DNA of 64,000 nucleotides, from assembly GCF_003002095.1 (NCBI RefSeq), contig NZ_PVZC01000003.1:620001-684000 (forward strand), read 5' to 3'. This document shows, in pieces, positions 29,190-38,557 of this stretch (position 1 is the stretch's first letter; every line of letters begins with the position of its first letter). Below the pieces are notes generated by a model. The model did no database searches and was not told the DNA's origin. It saw nothing but the letters and a program-made list of their open reading frames with translations. This DNA is from Allonocardiopsis opalescens. Its GTDB lineage: Bacteria; Actinomycetota; Actinomycetes; Streptosporangiales; Streptosporangiaceae. The translations under genes and the position numbers were made by a program.

Positions 29190-30662
29190 GTGCGCGAAGC
29201 CCACTCCGTCCCCGCCGTGCGGGCCGCCGAGGCGGCGCTGATGGCGCGGCTGCCCGACGGCGCGCTGATGGCGCGCGCCGCCGCCGGGCTGGCCGTGGTC
29301 TGCGCCCGCGCCCTGCCCCGGGTCTACGGCGCCCGGGTGGTGCTGCTGGTGGGCGGCGGCGACAACGGCGGCGACGCGCTCTACGCGGGCGCCCGGCTGG
29401 CCGGGCGCGGCGCCCGGGTGGTGGCGCTGGCGGCCGGGTCCAGGATCCACCAGGGCGGGCTGGCCGCGCTGCGCCGGGCCGGGGGCGTCCTGGGCACCGA
29501 CCCGGCCGAGATCGACCGCGCCGACCTGGTGGTCGACGGCCTGCTCGGCATCGGCGGCCGGGGCGGCCTGCGCGAGCCGCACCGCGAACTGGCCGAGCGG
29601 GCGAACGCCGCCGCGGCCGCGGTGGTCGCGGTCGACCTGCCCAGCGGGGTGGACGCCGGCACCGGCGCGGTCGAGGGCGCGGCGGTGCGGGCCGACATCA
29701 CGGTCACCTTCGGCACCCACAAGCCCGGCCTGCTCATCGACCCGGGCGCCGCCTTCGCGGGCGTGGTCGAGTTCGTCGACATCGGGCTCGGCCCCGAGTT
29801 GGGGCCGCCCGAGGTGGTGGCGGCGCAGGCGTCCGACATCGCGGCGCTGCTGCCGCGCCCGTCGGCGGAGTCCGACAAGTACCGGCGCGGGGTGCTCGGC
29901 CTGGTGGCGGGCAGCACCCGCTATCCCGGCGCGGCGGTGCTGGCGGTCGGCGGCGCGCTGCGCGGCGGCGCCGGCATGGTGCGCTTCGTCTCGGCGGCGG
30001 GCGCGGTGGACCATGTGCTCAGCCGCTGGCCCGAGGCGGTGACCACCGTGCTCGACCCCGAGGCGCCCGACCCGCGCGCCGCCGGGCGGGTGCAGGCCTG
30101 GGCGGTCGGCCCCGGCGCGGGCACCGGCGAGCAGGCGGTGCGGACGCTGGCGGCGGTGCTGTCGGGCTCCGAGCCGGTCCTGGTGGACGCCGACGGCCTC
30201 AGCTGCCTGGCCGCCCGCCCCGAGCTGGTCCGCGACCGGGAAGCCCCGACCCTGCTCACTCCGCACGCCGGCGAGCTGACCCGGCTGCTGGCCGCCGCCG
30301 GGACGGAGACCGAGCCCGCGCGGGTGGCGGCGCACCGGCTCGACCACGCCAGGCGGGCGGCGGACGCCTACGGCTGCACGGTGCTGCTGAAGGGCTCCAC
30401 CACGGTCATCGCCGGCCCCGGCGAGTCGGGCCCGGCCGCGGTGAACACCACCGGCACCCCCTGGCTGGCCACGGCCGGCAGCGGCGATGTGCTCTCCGGC
30501 CTGATCGGCGCCCAGCTGGCCGGCGGCCTGGGGCCGCACGACGCGGCGGTGGCCGGCGCCTACCTGCACGGCCTGGCCGCGCGGATCGCCGCCGAGGGCG
30601 CCCCGATCTCGGCCGCCGACCTGATCACCGCGCTGCCGGGCGCCTTCCGGGCGGTGGGCTGA
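29190..30662 (+). CDS. nnrDE: Bifunctional NAD(P)HX epimerase/dehydratase
   Basis: Repairs hydrated NADH/NADPH. 490 residues: the N-terminal YjeF-type epimerase (about 1-210; GGGDNGGDALYAGARL, VDLPSGVDAGTG) and the C-terminal ADP- or ATP-dependent dehydratase of the ribokinase fold (about 220-490; LTPHAGELTRLL, TAGSGDVLSGLIGA). GTG start with GGAGG. In the usual actinobacterial order it lies upstream of alr, as here, although four genes now separate them. Confidence 0.95.
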   Translation: MREAHSVPAVRAAEAALMARLPDGALMARAAAGLAVVCARALPRVYGARVVLLVGGGDNGGDALYAGARLAGRGARVVALAAGSRIHQGGLAALRRAGGVLGTDPAEIDRADLVVDGLLGIGGRGGLREPHRELAERANAAAAAVVAVDLPSGVDAGTGAVEGAAVRADITVTFGTHKPGLLIDPGAAFAGVVEFVDIGLGPELGPPEVVAAQASDIAALLPRPSAESDKYRRGVLGLVAGSTRYPGAAVLAVGGALRGGAGMVRFVSAAGAVDHVLSRWPEAVTTVLDPEAPDPRAAGRVQAWAVGPGAGTGEQAVRTLAAVLSGSEPVLVDADGLSCLAARPELVRDREAPTLLTPHAGELTRLLAAAGTETEPARVAAHRLDHARRAADAYGCTVLLKGSTTVIAGPGESGPAAVNTTGTPWLATAGSGDVLSGLIGAQLAGGLGPHDAAVAGAYLHGLAARIAAEGAPISAADLITALPGAFRAVG

Positions 30663-30671
30663 GCTCCCGGC

Positions 30672-31268
30672 TCAGTCGTCGGCGCCCACCAGCAGGGCGA
30701 GGGTGCCCGCGCGCCGGTCGACCAGCACCAGCTCGTGGAACTCGATGTGCACCCCGCCCCACACGTGGAAGGCGTCGCGGCCGAGCTCGCGCAGCCGGTA
30801 CCGGCCGGTGGCCGCCCGGATCGGCTGGTAGGCGGCCTGCTCCAGGGCGGCGGCCAGCGCCGCGGGCACCGGGCCGCCGCCCTCGGCCCAGGTCCGCACG
30901 GTGTGCTCGGCCTCCTGCGCGCTGACCGGCTCGTAGGCGTCGGCGGTGACCGCGTCGAGCCGGTAGGAGCCGTGCCAGCCGCCGGCCTCGTTGGCGCCGT
31001 CGCCGGCGTAGCCGTCGCGGAACTGGACGTGCCCGATGAGCGCCTCCAGCAGCCCGCGGTCGTCGGGCGGTCGCGGGCCGAGGTCGAAGTGCTTGACGTC
31101 CAGCCACCGGTAGGCGTGGCCGCCCGGCTCGGCGAAGTCGAAGCGGCGGAAGTTCACGAACACCTGCTCGCGGAAGTCCAGGACCGGCGCGCCGGGCGCC
31201 TCCGCCGCCCCGCCCGTCCGGGCCTGCGCTCCGGCCGGCTCGGCCGATCCGTCGGTATCTGCTGCCAC
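30672..31268 (-). CDS. Hypothetical protein, function unknown
   Basis: 198 residues from a GTG preceded by GGGGGG. Apart from an Ala/Gly-rich N-terminus, it looks like a compact globular protein: DFREQVFVNFRRFDF, YRWLDVKHFDLG, HVWGGVHIEFHELVLVD. No signal peptide or membrane segment. I do not recognise the family. The reading frame extends upstream to 31589, but that part is probably not translated. It converges with nnr and is divergent from the VOC gene. Confidence 0.65.
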   Translation of the reverse strand: MAADTDGSAEPAGAQARTGGAAEAPGAPVLDFREQVFVNFRRFDFAEPGGHAYRWLDVKHFDLGPRPPDDRGLLEALIGHVQFRDGYAGDGANEAGGWHGSYRLDAVTADAYEPVSAQEAEHTVRTWAEGGGPVPAALAAALEQAAYQPIRAATGRYRLRELGRDAFHVWGGVHIEFHELVLVDRRAGTLALLVGADD

Positions 31269-31533
31269 CGCGGTCCCCCCGTGTCCGGCGCCGCTCGGCC
31301 GAGCGGCGCGGCGTCCGGCCCGGTGCCGCCCGGTGTCGCCGGTCCGGCGCGGGCCGCGACGCCACGGTAACCGGCGGGCGGGCGGCACGTCACCGTCCGC
31401 GCGCCGTCCGTGTGTCCGGGGCGGCGGCCGGACACGCCGGGCCGCCGGCAGCGCGGATGTCGGATCGGCGTGCGATAACGGCGGAGGGGCGCCCGCGGAG
31501 GTGCGGGCGCCGGACCAGGAAGGACGGTGCCCG

Positions 31534-31920
31534 GTGGACTGGACGCTCGAAGTGGTGGTGGTGCCGGTCGCGGACGTCGACCGCGCCAAGCGGTTCTACG
31601 CCGAGCAGGTCGGCTTCGCCGTCGACCACGACACCGACGCGGGCGGGGGTACGCGCATAGTGCAGCTCACCCCGCCCGGTTCGGGCTGCTCCATCGTGAT
31701 CGGCACCGGGCTGCCCGGCAGCGACGCGGCCCCGCTCAAGGGCCTCCAGCTGGTGGTCTCCGACATCGAGGCGGCCCGCGCCCAGCTGCTCGCCCGCGAT
31801 GTCGCGGTCAGCGCCGTGCACGAGATCGACCCGCGCGACGGCGGCCGCTTCGTGTACTTCGACGACCCCGACGGCAACAGCTGGGCGGTGCAGGAGATCC
31901 GCGCCCGCGCCCGGGCCTGA
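31534..31920 (+). CDS. VOC (glyoxalase/bleomycin-resistance) family protein
   Basis: 128 residues with paired beta-alpha-beta-beta-beta units: LEVVVVPVADVDRAKRFYAEQVGF, then LQLVVSDIEAARAQLLARDV and FVYFDDPDGNSWAVQEI. The metal-binding positions typical of dioxygenases are incomplete, so it may be a binding or isomerase-type member. GTG start with AGGAAGGA upstream. It lies 46 bases before the eis-like gene. Confidence 0.88.
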   Translation: MDWTLEVVVVPVADVDRAKRFYAEQVGFAVDHDTDAGGGTRIVQLTPPGSGCSIVIGTGLPGSDAAPLKGLQLVVSDIEAARAQLLARDVAVSAVHEIDPRDGGRFVYFDDPDGNSWAVQEIRARARA

Positions 31921-31966: not shown

Positions 31967-33208
31967 ATGGCTCTCGACGTACGCACCATCACCGAAAGTG
32001 AGGTCGACGCCTGGTGCGCGGCCTGGGACACCGGCTCGCTGAACCCGGCCGGCGGGGCCGACGCGCCGGCGCGCCGCCGCGGGCTGCTGCTCGACCGCAC
32101 CTGGGCCGCCTTCGACGGCGACCGCGCCGTCGCGACCCTGCGCAGCTTCCCGGCCGAGCTGACCCTGCCCGGCGGCGGCACCGTCACGGCCGGCGCCGTC
32201 ACCCAGGTCGGCACCGCGGCCACCCACCGCAGGCGGGGGCTGGCCACCCGCCTGGTCGAGGCCGAGCTGGCCGCGGCGGCGCGGCGGGGCGAGCCGGTCA
32301 GCGTGCTGATCGCGTCGGAGTGGGGCATCTACGGGCGCTTCGGCTACGGCGCCGCCACCGAGCACCAGCACTACACCGTCGACACCCGCGCCGCGCGGCT
32401 GATCGACCGCCCGCGCGGCTCGGTGGAGTTCGTCGACCGCGACACCGCGCGGGCCGCCGCGCCCGGGCTGCACGCCCGGCACCGCGCCGGCCGGCCGGGC
32501 GACCTGGCCCGCGACGGCCTGTTCTGGGACCGGCTGTTCGGTATCGCCCGCGTGCCCGGCCGGCCGCAGCCGGCGCCCGCCTTCCACGTGCTGGCCCGCG
32601 ACGCCGGCGGGCACCCCGCCGGCCTGGCCCGCTACCGCGCCGAGCTGCGCACGGAGCACCGGGTGCCCGCCGGCGAGGCGACGGCCGAGCTGTTCCTGGC
32701 CGTCTCCCGGGACGGCGCGCTGCTGCTCTGGGACCACCTGCTCAATCTGGACCTGGTCACGACGGTGCGCGTCGGCGACCGCCCGGCCGACGAGGCGCTG
32801 CCCTGGCTGCTCACCGACGCGCGGGCGGCCCGGGCCGCGGAGCGGGCCGACTTCCTGTGGGTGCGCCCGCTCGACGTGCCCGCGCTGCTGGCCGGCCGTC
32901 GCTACGCCGCCCCGGGGCGGATCGTGCTGGAGGTGGACGACCCCCTCGGCTTCGCGGCCGGCCGCTTCGCCCTGCACGCCGGGGGCGGCGACGGCTCCGT
33001 GGGCCACCCCGCGTCGTGCGAGCGCACCGACGCCCCCGCCGAGCTGGCGCTGAGCGCGTCGGCGCTCGGCTCGGTCTGCCTCGGCGGCTTCGGGGTGGGC
33101 GCGCTGGCCGCGGCTGGGCGGATCGCCGAGCGCATCCCCGGGGCGGCGGCGCGGGCCGACGCGATGTTCCACTGGCCGACGGCGCCGTGGTGCAGCACCT
33201 GGTTCTGA
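31967..33208 (+). CDS. Eis-like GNAT N-acetyltransferase
   Basis: 413 residues, near the 402 of mycobacterial Eis, and with the same plan: an N-terminal GNAT domain with the acetyl-CoA loop THRRRGLATRL, a second GNAT-like half, and a C-terminal SCP2-like region. Tyr122 in IYGRFGYG corresponds to the catalytic Tyr of Eis (126), and the protein ends in Phe (CSTWF), as required in Eis, where the terminal carboxylate acts as base. Eis proteins acetylate aminoglycosides or peptides; the substrate here is unknown. No SD; TAGCCT lies six bases upstream. Confidence 0.85.
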   Translation: MALDVRTITESEVDAWCAAWDTGSLNPAGGADAPARRRGLLLDRTWAAFDGDRAVATLRSFPAELTLPGGGTVTAGAVTQVGTAATHRRRGLATRLVEAELAAAARRGEPVSVLIASEWGIYGRFGYGAATEHQHYTVDTRAARLIDRPRGSVEFVDRDTARAAAPGLHARHRAGRPGDLARDGLFWDRLFGIARVPGRPQPAPAFHVLARDAGGHPAGLARYRAELRTEHRVPAGEATAELFLAVSRDGALLLWDHLLNLDLVTTVRVGDRPADEALPWLLTDARAARAAERADFLWVRPLDVPALLAGRRYAAPGRIVLEVDDPLGFAAGRFALHAGGGDGSVGHPASCERTDAPAELALSASALGSVCLGGFGVGALAAAGRIAERIPGAAARADAMFHWPTAPWCSTWF

Positions 33209-33400: not shown

Positions 33401-35773
33401 ATGAACAGAACGAAGACGACGGACTCGCAGGCGATGCTGACGCGGGATCTGGTGCTGCGCCTGTGCGCCACCCCGTCGGAGTTCGACGGCGCCTGGCTGG
33501 CAGAGGGGCACAAGGTCGCCGCCCCCTACCTGGCCCGCAGGGACGCCGAGCTGGCGCGCACCATCGTCGAGGCCGCCTACACCATGGGCGCCGACCGGCT
33601 GCTGGTCTGCCGCACCCGGTCCGAGCACGCCTACGACCCGGTCTCGGTCATCCCGGCGCAGGCCGGGGCGCTGATCGACCTGGTGCAGAGCTGGGGCGGG
33701 GAGCCCACCGACTTCCTCGTCGCGCTGGAGGACCTGTCCGGGGCGGTGCTGGTCACGGCCGGGCCGCTCACGGTGGCGGTGGGCCCGGCGCCCTTCCTGC
33801 GCACCCTGGTCGGCCCCGACATCGGGCGGGCGCGGGCCGCCTTCGCCCAGCGGGCGCTGGACGGCCACGACAGCGTGCTGATGCAGGCCGCCACCCGCTA
33901 CGGCTGCATCGAGCCCGGCGCCCGGCACGCGCGGACGCGCAGGGAGCCGCGGCCCGACCTCGCCGAGCGGCTGAACAACCGCGCCGCCGCGCTGCGCGAG
34001 CGCCGCCCGGGCACCGCGGCGGTGCTGCGGGCCAGCCGCGCCCTGCTCGCCTGGGCGCTGGTGGTCTTCCTGGCCGCCGTGGTCCTCGCACTGCCCGAGG
34101 CGCAGCGCGCCGCCGCCGTGTTCTTCACCCTGCTGTGGCTGCTGGTCCAGCTCTGCCTGTTCGCCCGGTCCCGCACGGTGACGCTGTCGGTGCTGATGCG
34201 GCTGGTGGCGGCGGGCGGCCTGATGGCCATCCCGGTCGCCCTGGCCGAGCCGGCGCTGGCCGGCGTCCTCGGCATGGCGCCGGCCGACCCCTTCGCCTAC
34301 GCCTACGTCGCCGTCCCGGTGGAGGAGGCGGCCAAGCTGGTGCCGCCGCTGCTGCTGTGGCTGCTGGCCCGGCAGCGGGTGCGCCGCTTCGCGGCCGTGG
34401 ACTACCTGCTGGTCGGCGCGGCCAGCGGCGCGGGCTTCCAGCTGGTCGAGCAGGGCATCACCGCCCTGGTCACCACCCCGGTGCCGGTGCTGGTGCCCCC
34501 GGGCGTGTGGACGCTGCTGCCCGGCTGGACCGACCTGGCGCAGCTCCGCTTCGCCGGCCACGCCGTGACCACCGCGCTCATCTGCGCGGGCGTCGGCCTG
34601 GCCGCCGTGGGCCGGCGCCGGTACGGCCTGCGGCTGTGGCTGCTGCCGCCGCTGCTGGCCGCCGTCGCCGTCCTGGACCACATGGCGCTGAACGCCGCCG
34701 CGGCCGGCCTGGACCTCACCGAGCCCACCCAGGCGGCGCACGCCCTGCTCGGCGGCGGCCACGCCACCCGCTGGCTGCTGCTGGCGCTGCTCGTGCTGGG
34801 CGTGCTGCTGGACCACCGGGCGGCTAGGGAGGTCGACGACGTCGTCCCGCCGCTGCCCGGCACCCCGCCGCTGTCGGCGCTGGCGCGGATGACGCGCGGG
34901 CTGGCGATCAGGATCCGGGCCCGGGTGCCCGGCGACATCGCGCCCGTCTTCGCCCGCTCGGCACGCTGGTGGGCGCAGTTCCCCGCCGCGCTGACCGAGA
35001 CGGTGGTGACCGTGCTGCACGAGTTCACCGTCGCCCTGGTGGCCGCCAGCCGGGGCCCGGCCACCCTCTTCGCGACGCTGCGGTTCATCAGGGAGCGCAG
35101 GGAGCTGGCGATGGCCGCCTACCGGGCGGGGCAGCGCCCGCGCCGCGACGTGCCGGCCCGGGTGCCGCTGTGGGACACCACCACCTGGCTGACCGGCGCG
35201 CTCACCGGCACCGCGGCCGTGGCCGCGGCGGTCGCGGCGGCCGGGATCCTCGCGCCGTCCGCGATCCGGCCCGGCGGCGCGGACGGCTCCGCGGCCGCAG
35301 TGCTCTCCGACGGTGGCTCCGCCGCCGCAGTGCCCATTGACGGCGGCTCCGCCGCCTACCTCGCCCTCCTCGTCGAAGACCTGCGGACCTGGCTGCTGCC
35401 GTACGCGCCGACGGGCTACACGATCGCGATCGGGGCGTCGATCGCGCTGGTCACGGTGCTGCTCACCGGCTGGTCGCCGCCGCGCGACCAGCTGACCATG
35501 AGCGGCTTCCTGCGCGACCCGCGCGGCGTGCTCGGCAACGCCCTGGGCACCGTCGCCCCCGGCCAGCTCGGCTACGCCCTGCTGGCCCTGCTCGGCCTGG
35601 CCGTTCCGCGCGGCATCGACACCCTGCTGGTCCGCCGCAGGGACGCCGCCCGCCGCCGCACCCTGGCCGCCGCCCACCGCCCCGGCGAGCTGGCCCCGCA
35701 CCCCGTCACCCCGCCCGACGGCGGCTCGCCCCCGTCGGGCACCTACCTCAACACCGACACCCCGCCCTGGTAG
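33401..35773 (+). CDS. PrsW-type intramembrane protease with N-terminal domain
   Basis: 790 residues. Residues 1-200 form a soluble domain I do not recognise, then come about ten hydrophobic segments. The PrsW catalytic motifs appear in order: VPVEEAAKLV (EExxK), GAASGAGFQLVEQ, FAGHAVTTALICAG, and LDHMALNAA. PrsW-type glutamic proteases cleave membrane proteins such as anti-sigma factors. After the core are a basic cytoplasmic stretch, two more hydrophobic segments and the small repeat SDGGSAAAV/IDGGSAAYL. A TTG at 33395 or the ATG at 33434 are other possible starts; none has a good SD. Confidence 0.8.
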   Translation: MNRTKTTDSQAMLTRDLVLRLCATPSEFDGAWLAEGHKVAAPYLARRDAELARTIVEAAYTMGADRLLVCRTRSEHAYDPVSVIPAQAGALIDLVQSWGGEPTDFLVALEDLSGAVLVTAGPLTVAVGPAPFLRTLVGPDIGRARAAFAQRALDGHDSVLMQAATRYGCIEPGARHARTRREPRPDLAERLNNRAAALRERRPGTAAVLRASRALLAWALVVFLAAVVLALPEAQRAAAVFFTLLWLLVQLCLFARSRTVTLSVLMRLVAAGGLMAIPVALAEPALAGVLGMAPADPFAYAYVAVPVEEAAKLVPPLLLWLLARQRVRRFAAVDYLLVGAASGAGFQLVEQGITALVTTPVPVLVPPGVWTLLPGWTDLAQLRFAGHAVTTALICAGVGLAAVGRRRYGLRLWLLPPLLAAVAVLDHMALNAAAAGLDLTEPTQAAHALLGGGHATRWLLLALLVLGVLLDHRAAREVDDVVPPLPGTPPLSALARMTRGLAIRIRARVPGDIAPVFARSARWWAQFPAALTETVVTVLHEFTVALVAASRGPATLFATLRFIRERRELAMAAYRAGQRPRRDVPARVPLWDTTTWLTGALTGTAAVAAAVAAAGILAPSAIRPGGADGSAAAVLSDGGSAAAVPIDGGSAAYLALLVEDLRTWLLPYAPTGYTIAIGASIALVTVLLTGWSPPRDQLTMSGFLRDPRGVLGNALGTVAPGQLGYALLALLGLAVPRGIDTLLVRRRDAARRRTLAAAHRPGELAPHPVTPPDGGSPPSGTYLNTDTPPW

Positions 35774-35827: not shown

Positions 35828-36943
35828 ATGGCGAACCAGGCAACGGCTCGGGTGGAGCTCTCCGCCATCAGCGGCAATGTCGCGTACCTGGCCGGCCTGA
35901 CCACCGCCCGGGTGATGGTGGCGGTCAAGGCCGACGGCTACGGCCACGGCATCGTGCCCTCGGCGCGGGCCGCGCTGGCCGGCGGGGCCGCCGCGCTGGG
36001 CACCGCCACGGTCGCCGAGGCGCTGCGCCTGCGCGCGGCCGGCATCACCGCCCCGGTGCTGGCCTGGCTGATCCCGCCGGACGAGCCGCTGGGCGCGGCG
36101 CTGGCGGCCGGGATCGAGCTGGGCGTCGGCTCGACGGAGGTGCTGGACGCGGTCGTGCACGCCGCCGCCACCGCCGGGGTGCGGGCCCGGGTGCACCTCA
36201 AGGCCGACACCGGCATGCACCGGGGCGGGTCCACCCCGGCCGACTGGCCGCGGCTCACCGAGGCGGCCGCCGCGGCGCAGGCCGCCGGGCGGATCGAGGT
36301 GGCCGGCGTCTTCTCGCACTTCGCCTGCGCCGACGAGCCCGGCCACCCGTCGATCCAGCTCCAGCTGACCGCGTTCAAGGGCGCTCTGGACGCCGCCGAG
36401 TCGGCGGGGCTCCGCCCCGAGCTGCGGCACTTCGCCAACTCCGCCGCCACCCTCACCCTGCCGGAGAGCCACTACGACCTGGTGCGCGTGGGCATCGCCG
36501 CCTACGGCCTGAGCCCGATCCCCGACCGCTTCGCCGACCGCCTGCGCCCGGCCATGACCTTCACGGCCCCGGTGGTGCAGGTCAAGCGGGTGCCGCCCGG
36601 CAGCGGGGTGTCCTACGGCCACCGCTACACCACCGGCGCCGCCACCACGCTGGCGCTGGTCCCGGCCGGCTACGCCGACGGCGTGCCGCGGGGGCTCACC
36701 AACCGGGGCGAGGTGCTGGCGGCCGGGCGGCGCCGCAGGATCGCCGGTACGGTCTGCATGGACCAGTTCGTGGTGGACGTGGGCGACGCCGAGGTGCGCC
36801 CCGGCGACGAGGTGGTGCTGTTCGGCCCCGGCGACCGGGGCGAGCCCACCGCGCACGACTGGGCTGGCGTGCTCGGCACGATCTCCTACGAGATAGTCAC
36901 CCGGATCGGAATCCGGGTACCAAGAGAGTATGAGGACGGTTGA
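35828..36943 (+). CDS. alr: Alanine racemase
   Basis: Makes D-alanine for peptidoglycan, using PLP. 371 residues. Lys34 in AVKADGYGHG is the PLP lysine and Tyr263 in SYGHRY is the second catalytic base; the C-terminal beta domain carries CMDQFVVDVGD. No Shine-Dalgarno: CAAGAT eight bases before the ATG may be a weak -10, so it could be leaderless. The next gene starts 3 bases after its stop. Confidence 0.96.
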   Translation: MANQATARVELSAISGNVAYLAGLTTARVMVAVKADGYGHGIVPSARAALAGGAAALGTATVAEALRLRAAGITAPVLAWLIPPDEPLGAALAAGIELGVGSTEVLDAVVHAAATAGVRARVHLKADTGMHRGGSTPADWPRLTEAAAAAQAAGRIEVAGVFSHFACADEPGHPSIQLQLTAFKGALDAAESAGLRPELRHFANSAATLTLPESHYDLVRVGIAAYGLSPIPDRFADRLRPAMTFTAPVVQVKRVPPGSGVSYGHRYTTGAATTLALVPAGYADGVPRGLTNRGEVLAAGRRRRIAGTVCMDQFVVDVGDAEVRPGDEVVLFGPGDRGEPTAHDWAGVLGTISYEIVTRIGIRVPREYEDG

Positions 36944-38095: not shown

Positions 38096-38557
38096 ATGAC
38101 CAGGGAGTTCACCGCGGCCACCGCCGAGGAGATGACGCAGCTGGGCCGGCGGCTCGCCGCCGATCTGCGCGCCGGCGACCTGCTGCTGCTGACCGGTCCG
38201 CTGGGCGCCGGCAAGACCACCCTCACCCAGGGCATCGGCGCCGGACTCGGCGTGCGCGGGCCGATCACCTCGCCGACCTTCGTCATCGCCCGCAGCCATC
38301 CCTCGCTGCACGGCGGTCCGCCGCTGGTGCACGCGGACGCCTACCGGCTGGGCGGGGTGGCCGAGCTGGACGACCTCGACCTCGACGCCGCCGTGGACTC
38401 TGCGGTCACCGTGGTGGAGTGGGGCGAGGGGCTGGCCGAGGAGCTGACCGAGGACCGGCTGCACATCCGGATCAGCCGCGAGGACGACGTGCGGCGCGTC
38501 TCCGTCACCGGCCACGGCGCCCGCTGGACCGGGATGCCGCTCGCGGCCGAGGGCTGA
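38096..38557 (+). CDS. tsaE: tRNA t6A biosynthesis ATPase TsaE
   Basis: ATPase partner of TsaB/TsaD for N6-threonylcarbamoyladenosine at tRNA position 37. 153 residues. Walker A GPLGAGKTTLTQGIG near residue 40, followed by SPTFVIAR and VHADAYRLGG; WGEGLAEEL is the Walker-B-side motif. Same cluster as tsaB, rimI and tsaD. ATG with GCAAGGCAGAGC upstream. Confidence 0.96.
   Translation: MTREFTAATAEEMTQLGRRLAADLRAGDLLLLTGPLGAGKTTLTQGIGAGLGVRGPITSPTFVIARSHPSLHGGPPLVHADAYRLGGVAELDDLDLDAAVDSAVTVVEWGEGLAEELTEDRLHIRISREDDVRRVSVTGHGARWTGMPLAAEG

What the first reader, a model, noticed from the sequence alone, without database searches (positions are those of the whole stretch)
33401..35773. PrsW-type membrane protease with unassigned N-terminal domain
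The four PrsW motifs are complete, but the protein is about 790 residues, far longer than the roughly 220 of Bacillus PrsW. It carries a 200-residue soluble N-terminal domain and two extra hydrophobic segments after a basic loop. No anti-sigma factor is nearby. The target and the N-terminal domain look undescribed from sequence alone.
Basis: partly seen in the sequence, partly recalled or inferred. Interest (0 to 1): 0.5.

Follow-up and report, generated by a model that had tools for sequence, protein, structure and literature searches.

The report
Toxin-less PrsW protease with immunity domain
An actinobacterium carries a conserved membrane-embedded protease that looks like the releasing half of a bacterial warfare toxin which lost its toxin and is joined to a domain otherwise found in the matching antidote proteins, suggesting that a weapon part was recycled for a job that is still unknown.

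Summary
In detail: 33401-35773 (+) encodes 790 residues with a PrsW core (Pfam 42.2 bits, cut-off 23.5), an ordered N-domain of about 170 residues and two further hydrophobic segments. Full-length relatives (719-790 aa in 30 loci) occur in Nocardiopsis, Thermobifida, Streptomonospora and kin, often between nnr and alr, with the putative catalytic residues kept in 30 of 30. The new part is where the pieces come from. The core plus C-terminal region is the scaffold of PrsW-type polymorphic toxins. The unassigned N-domain is shared with five putative Colicin D immunity proteins, three of them next to a Colicin D-tipped gene. In one genome of another family the two pieces stand as separate neighbouring genes, PrsW-Colicin D toxin and N-domain immunity protein, in the same nnr-alr slot. 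The window protein has no recognised toxin tip or Colicin_immun domain, and its genome has no detected Colicin D. In a tree rooted on toxin-bearing relatives the N-domain proteins form one derived clade. I read it as a domesticated toxin-release protease with an immunity-derived cytosolic domain. Substrate and N-domain partner are unknown; polarity rests on few toxin-bearing rows. New variant of a known kind.

The parts
33401..35773 (+). whole coding sequence, 790 aa, N-domain-PrsW fusion without a recognised toxin tip
   Evidence: ORF, Pfam, 30 full-length rows
33401..33916 (+). N-domain (residues 1-172), alpha/beta, predicted cytosolic, shared with putative Colicin D immunity proteins
   Evidence: profile and tblastn matches, pLDDT 90 alone, 39 invariant columns in 30 rows
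33917..34039 (+). basic linker (residues 173-213), 12 K/R against 4 D/E, predicted cytosolic
34040..34831 (+). PrsW core (residues 214-477), eight membrane helices by my count of model helices
34322..34336 (+). motif EExxK (E308, E309, K312)
   Evidence: identical in 30 of 30
34436..34450 (+). motif FxxxE (F346, E350)
   Evidence: E350 in 30 of 30, F346 in 29 of 30
34559..34561 (+). motif histidine H387
   Evidence: identical in 30 of 30
34679..34693 (+). motif HxxxN (H427, N431)
   Evidence: identical in 30 of 30
34832..35182 (+). basic, mostly helical stretch (residues 478-594), predicted cytosolic
   Evidence: aligned to toxin-bearing relatives
35183..35464 (+). two further hydrophobic segments (about 605-621 and 675-687) with a low-confidence stretch between them
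   Evidence: the first segment by hydropathy only
35507..35605 (+). FLRDP...APGQ stretch (residues 703-735), shared with toxin-bearing relatives before their tip
35606..35770 (+). variable tail (residues 736-790), low confidence; the place where relatives carry a toxin; no toxin domain found
29190..30662 (+). nnr (YjeF), upstream landmark of the slot
31967..33208 (+). Eis-like GNAT acetyltransferase, upstream neighbour
35828..36943 (+). alr, alanine racemase, downstream landmark of the slot
38096..38557 (+). tsaE, downstream landmark

Best explanation
The gene encodes a PrsW-family intramembrane metalloprotease that descends from a PrsW-type polymorphic toxin locus. The toxin tip is gone, and an N-domain of the kind that heads certain putative Colicin D immunity proteins is joined to the N-terminus. 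Shown by sequence: homology of both parts, no recognised toxin or Colicin_immun domain, single-copy conservation, kept motif residues. Inferred: (1) toxin loss and N-domain gain happened once, before the window lineage split from the Nocardiopsis/Thermobifida group; (2) the core is an active protease with N-domain and tail in the cytosol; (3) the N-domain is a receptor that binds a cytosolic partner or ligand and so chooses the substrate or switches the protease, which now cuts another membrane protein instead of releasing its own tip; (4) the C-terminal hydrophobic region is a leftover of the toxin scaffold. Substrate and partner are not identified.
For: PrsW core with kept motifs. Scaffold shared with PrsW proteins that go on into a further domain: G150 (hhalign E 1.2e-72, 42% identity; Colicin_D tip, 28.4 bits against 25), G021 (WHH nuclease tip, SUKH-family gene next to it), G008 (hhalign E 2e-41, tip without Pfam match). 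In G150 the two pieces are separate genes: tblastn of the window protein matches residues 180-737 to the toxin gene (41%, E 1.7e-78) and residues 13-177 to the gene 16 bases downstream (35%, E 4e-20), both between nnr and alr, with the hydrolase and tsaE following. N-domain without PrsW in five proteins with a Colicin_immun-like second half, three next to Colicin_D-tipped genes on different carriers: PrsW, RHS, PT-HINT. Tree rooted on the G008/G021 pair: G150 first, then the 30 N-domain proteins as one clade, 100/100. 39 of 40 genomes of the largest genus group carry one N-domain match; none of the 40, nor the window genome, has a detected Colicin D. The N-domain is better kept (mean 55% to the window) than core (50%) or C-terminal region (32%).
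Against: No activity, substrate or partner is known. Only three tip-bearing relatives of this scaffold were found in 200 order genomes, and a search of 296 class genomes added only G388, which has no recognised toxin; so lack of a toxin is not unique to this clade. The root was my choice, the tool warns that long branches meet at G150, and the window's first place inside the clade has 94/84 only. A first tree with two distant PrsW rows placed them, and so its midpoint root, inside the N-domain proteins. All five immunity proteins are weak as Colicin_immun: below the cut-off of 22 in three (21.1, 19.0, 16.6 bits), no match in two. In G150 the immunity gene lies after PrsW, whereas in the fusion the N-domain comes first, so a rearrangement is needed. 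At least two genomes with the N-domain PrsW, G042 and G018, do have Colicin_D genes elsewhere.
Confidence: 0.5

Rival explanations
1. Signalling protease: a PrsW that senses a cytosolic cue through the N-domain and starts regulated proteolysis of a membrane regulator such as an anti-sigma factor; the likeness to toxin systems is only shared ancestry of parts.
For: PrsW of Bacillus makes the site-1 cut of RsiW, and PrsW fused to PilZ, cyclic-nucleotide, FHA and Zn-ribbon domains is described (PMC3482391, passages). Single-copy conservation suits a regulator.
Against: No sigma/anti-sigma domain in 17 neighbouring frames scanned. The closest scaffold relatives mostly carry tips, and the other homes of the N-domain are putative immunity proteins and one weak stand-alone hit.
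Confidence: 0.25
2. Reverse order: the N-domain-PrsW protein is the old form, and toxin loci such as G150 were built from it by splitting off the N-domain to an immunity protein and adding a toxin tip.
For: The N-domain form is much commoner (63 of the 64 scaffold-bearing genomes among 200, read), and the polarity depends on the chosen outgroup.
Against: N-domain immunity proteins also go with RHS and PT-HINT toxins, and tip-bearing PrsW without N-domain lies on both deeper branches, so the separate parts look older than the fusion.
Confidence: 0.13
3. Immunity device: the N-domain captures incoming Colicin D-like toxins of competitors at the membrane and PrsW cuts them, a proteolytic orphan immunity.
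For: N-domain shared with putative immunity proteins next to Colicin_D genes in 3 of 5 cases; no Colicin D found in the window genome or in 40 genomes of one genus group, as an orphan immunity would have it.
Against: Colicin_immun alone, 88-90 aa, follows Colicin_D genes in G042 and G018, so the N-domain is not needed for immunity and is probably not the inhibiting part. The window protein has no Colicin_immun match.
Confidence: 0.12

Closest known systems
PrsW family (Pfam PF13367), Bacillus PrsW
   Same: Pfam match above cut-off, EExxK / FxxxE / H / HxxxN residues, eight core helices by prediction
   Different: 790 instead of about 220 residues (recalled); N-domain, basic stretch and further hydrophobic segments; no anti-sigma gene seen nearby
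PrsW-type polymorphic toxins (Zhang et al. 2012, PMC3482391, passages seen)
   Same: same scaffold, from the core to the FLRDP...APGQ stretch
   Different: no recognised C-terminal toxin domain, no adjacent immunity gene, an N-domain at the front, found across a whole genus group
Two-domain putative Colicin D immunity proteins (G150, G048, G057, G658, G647; name mine)
   Same: first half homologous to the window N-domain (30-36% identity for G150, G048, G057)
   Different: they have a Colicin_immun-like second half and no membrane part
PrsW fused to intracellular signalling domains (PilZ, FHA, cyclic-nucleotide binding; PMC3482391, passages)
   Same: soluble domain fused to a PrsW core
   Different: the N-domain matches none of these in Pfam, and the paper sets those versions apart from toxin-linked ones

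Membership tests
PrsW family (PF13367) | profile match above the curated cut-off | tested here: met
   42.2 bits against 23.5
PrsW family (PF13367) | conserved motif residues | tested here: met
   seven residues identical in 30 of 30 rows, F346 in 29 of 30
PrsW family (PF13367) | eight transmembrane helices | tested here: met
   by prediction only: my count of model helices and loop charges
PrsW family (PF13367) | proteolytic activity | not testable with these tools
   needs an assay
Site-1 protease of a sigma pathway | sigma/anti-sigma pair encoded nearby | tested here: not met
   none in 17 neighbouring frames scanned; pairs elsewhere in the genome not tested
PrsW-type polymorphic toxin | PrsW scaffold | tested here: met
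   hhalign E 1.2e-72 with G150, 2e-41 with G008
PrsW-type polymorphic toxin | C-terminal toxin domain | tested here: not met
   no Pfam match up to E 1 in residues 563-790; the 30 rows end within about 60 residues after the scaffold
PrsW-type polymorphic toxin | adjacent immunity gene | tested here: not met
   direct neighbours are an Eis-like GNAT gene and alr
Colicin D immunity protein | Colicin_immun domain (PF09204) | tested here: not met
   no match in the window protein
Colicin D immunity protein | adjacent Colicin D toxin | tested here: not met
   no Colicin_D match in the held genome
CdiI-like immunity fold (5t86_I) | same fold as the N-domain | tested here: inconclusive
   Z 5.5, rmsd 4.0, 103 aligned, within the range the tool calls common

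The most novel reading that the evidence does not exclude
The fusion is a membrane-anchored proteolytic immunity: the antidote-type N-domain catches incoming Colicin D-type toxins, or their carriers, at the cytosolic face of the membrane and the former toxin-release protease cuts them, so that one lineage turned both halves of a toxin-immunity pair into a single-copy defence enzyme.
Probability: 0.1. Interest if true: 0.8.

Novelty: new variant of a known kind. Interest (0 to 1): 0.5.

Why it matters
It is a traceable case of a bacterial warfare module that seems to have become a conserved chromosomal membrane protease, with the two separate genes still visible in one relative at the same place. 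It gives the unassigned N-domain a context (putative Colicin D immunity proteins) that makes its binding partner testable, and it points to PrsW proteins whose substrates may lie outside sigma pathways.

Tried and rejected
A plain sigma-pathway PrsW: no pair seen nearby; kept as a rival. A known N-domain family: no match in Pfam, NCBIfam, PADLOC, PHROGs; PDB sequences at best E 0.29. A known fold: Foldseek best E 0.11, none at 0.001; VIA best Z 6.6 (9o5a_D, KICSTOR complex, rmsd 4.1, 123 aligned), then a second KICSTOR chain 6.1, CRISPR III-D chains 5.8 and 5t86_I 5.5; the tool says such Z are common, so I draw nothing from them. The membrane part of the full model matched 7tm3_6 (Z 10.4, rmsd 5.1, 209 aligned) and an APH-1 chain (8oqy_C, Z 9.8, rmsd 5.1, 211 aligned); PMC3482391 states a distant PrsW-APH-1 relation. 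Solved Colicin D immunity proteins: with eight second halves the profile met 1v74_B and 1tfk_B only at E 0.26 and 0.32, below a carboxypeptidase at 0.034; with three, not at all; single proteins found nothing. Neighbours as partners: PEMT genes (above cut-off) and a polyketide-cyclase-like gene (below cut-off) lie upstream of some orthologues but were not among the window frames scanned between nnr and alr, so I dropped them. An N-domain to N-domain docking idea was dropped: G150, G048, G057, G658 and G647 each gave a single N-domain match, but the numbers are too small for a test. The G150 immunity protein has no plasmid match. The first tree was set aside because two distant PrsW rows and G388 sit on very long branches; the second leaves those three rows out.

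Full report
Observation. The ORF 33401-35773 (+) is 790 aa from its ATG. Pfam sees one domain, PrsW-protease at residues 263-435, E 8.3e-11 and 42.2 bits against a cut-off of 23.5; residues 1-210 and 563-790 scanned alone match nothing up to E 1. NCBIfam has no match, PADLOC none, PHROGs one weak one in the core (residues 297-351, E 0.0022).

Conservation. A search of 150 genomes of the same family hit 37; two of these (G048, G057) are N-domain proteins without PrsW, and G049 is in pieces. I took 30 loci including the window: all give proteins of 719-790 aa; for the 29 others I chose the Met just before a conserved MxxQxM...RDL segment, which lies six residues inside the window start. In A1 the N-domain is on average 55% identical to the window (29 rows), the core 50%, the basic stretch 53% and the C-terminal region 32%; 39 of 172 N-domain columns are invariant in 30 rows. 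E308, E309, K312, E350, H387, H427 and N431 are identical in 30 of 30, F346 in 29. The 22 named loci belong to Nocardiopsis, Thermobifida, Streptomonospora, Marinitenerispora and Allosalinactinospora and to two MAGs. In the largest genus group 39 of 40 genomes carry the N-domain, one match each; among genomes at least 90% complete with at most 5% contamination, 36 of 36.

Place in the genome. Window neighbours are PGM/PMM and GlmS-like genes, nnr, a VOC protein, an Eis-like acetyltransferase, then alr, a hydrolase, tsaE, a GNAT gene and two TsaD-family genes. Of 28 flanked loci (L041 and L046 are the same contig), nnr is in reach in 23 and alr in 12; some stretches are cut by contig ends. The nnr-alr slot is thus common but not universal.

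Shape. AlphaFold with 30 rows gives pLDDT 83.9, pTM 0.84; the N-domain alone with 34 rows gives 90.0 and 0.86. Loop charges put the N-domain, the 474-594 stretch and the tail in the cytosol, with eight core helices by my count and two more hydrophobic segments; the first of these lies in a stretch with pLDDT under 50. The topology is a prediction.

The scaffold belongs to toxins. Two genomes that also have the N-domain protein, G008 and G021, carry a second PrsW protein with the same C-terminal region and a further C-terminal domain. In G021 this is a WHH nuclease (PF14414, E 1.9e-15), with a SUKH-family gene next to it. In G008 the tip has no Pfam match; that it is a nuclease is my reading only, and the label ToxREase in the trees is mine. 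In G150, from another family of the order, a 731-aa PrsW protein aligns to the A1 profile from residue 184 to the end of the scaffold (E 1.2e-72, 42% identity) and ends in Colicin_D (PF11429, 28.4 bits against 25). That PrsW peptidases are fused to toxins and may export and release them was proposed by Zhang et al. 2012 (PMC3482391; I saw passages).

The N-domain belongs with immunity proteins. An N-domain profile (A2, which already held the G048 and G057 proteins) matched 70 of 249 order genomes and 24 of 394 class genomes, overlapping sets. Outside PrsW fusions it lies in G150, G048 and G057 and, weakly (E 1e-6, 179-aa frame), in G472. A profile of the first three proteins, run on all 341 held genomes of the family, gave two more, G658 and G647. 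The second halves of these five are weakly Colicin_immun-like: 21.1 bits in G057, 19.0 in G658 and 16.6 in G647, all under the cut-off of 22, and no match in G150 and G048, which align with each other at 37% over nearly their whole length. Short proteins with Colicin_immun alone (G042, 58.2 bits; G018, 44.4 bits) directly follow Colicin_D genes (77.0 and 80.7 bits). Three of the five two-domain proteins are next to a Colicin_D-tipped gene: G150 (PrsW carrier), G048 (RHS carrier, 42.7 bits), G658 (PT-HINT carrier, 53.5 bits). For G057 and G647 tblastn with two tips found none in 19.0 and 14.0 kb. Of four loci with only the second half, G042 and G018 are next to a tip; G078 and G070 (a 45-residue match) are not.

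The same slot. In G150 tblastn with window proteins finds, in order and on one strand, nnr (61%), the PrsW-Colicin D gene (window residues 180-737, 41%, E 1.7e-78), the immunity gene (window residues 13-177, 35%, E 4e-20) starting 16 bases after the toxin's stop codon, alr (64%), the hydrolase (47%) and tsaE (71%); a Melibiase-like gene lies between immunity gene and alr. So the window protein corresponds to two neighbouring genes of a toxin-immunity pair in the same slot.

Order of events. In 200 order genomes 64 have the scaffold: 63 with an N-domain protein at the same place, two of these broken over contigs or frames (G049, G167), and G150 (one search read); tip-bearing copies are in G150, G008 and G021. 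Among 296 class genomes only G388 was added, a 571-aa relative without recognised toxin. A tree of 33 rows rooted on the G008/G021 pair puts G150 next and the 30 N-domain proteins in one clade, 100/100, the window first in it with 94/84. The root was chosen by me, two distant PrsW rows and G388 were left out after a first tree with very long branches, and the program warns that long branches meet at G150. Tip-bearing forms on both deeper branches favour toxin loss and N-domain gain; they do not prove it.

No own toxin in the window genome. It has no Colicin_D match, nor has any of 40 genomes of the genus group, 39 of which carry the N-domain protein; the control rang in 1 of 14 known genomes. 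A divergent tip could be missed, and G042 and G018, of other genera, have both the N-domain PrsW and separate Colicin_D genes with their own Colicin_immun neighbours.

How it may work. With motif residues kept and no tip to release, self-release cannot be the job. The simplest reading is a protease that cuts another membrane protein, with the N-domain as cytosolic receptor. Since 88-90-aa Colicin_immun proteins stand alone beside Colicin_D genes, the N-domain is probably an accessory of the two-domain immunity proteins and not their inhibiting part, which argues against simple immunity by the window protein. What it binds is open.

Known or new. Searches of the held papers for PrsW with intramembrane protease and anti-sigma (8 papers), polymorphic toxin (1), toxin and actinobacteria (1), Streptomyces (12), CPBP (4), two of PrsW / Nocardiopsis / Thermobifida (67, 8 listed), and for colicin D with immunity and actinobacteria (9) showed no description of this architecture in what I saw, which was listings and, for PMC3482391, passages. 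The library lacks most subscription journals.

Noticed in passing
window genome G000 C10, about 317.5-319.5 kb (L001, L002, L039): Two further PrsW genes in tandem (414- and 566-residue frames) with far stronger Pfam matches than the window protein.
   Followed up: partly
window 31967-33208: Eis-type GNAT acetyltransferase directly upstream, above the NCBIfam cut-off of NF002367 (305 against 259 bits).
   Followed up: no
window 30672-31589 (-): Minus-strand frame without a Pfam match between nnr and the VOC gene; may or may not be a gene.
   Followed up: no
L116:5485-7197 (-), G388: 571-aa scaffold relative from elsewhere in the class, without recognised toxin and without a Pfam PrsW match.
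   Followed up: partly
L157:6414-8308 and L158:7606-9377: PT-HINT-Colicin_D genes directly followed by 88-90-aa Colicin_immun genes, in genomes that also have the N-domain PrsW.
   Followed up: partly
L112:8456-13453: RHS-Colicin_D protein between a WXG100-like gene and the N-domain immunity gene.
   Followed up: partly
L119:11054-14443, L122:11997-14191: PEMT-like genes, with a polyketide-cyclase-like or unmatched gene beside them, upstream of the N-domain PrsW in some orthologous loci.
   Followed up: partly
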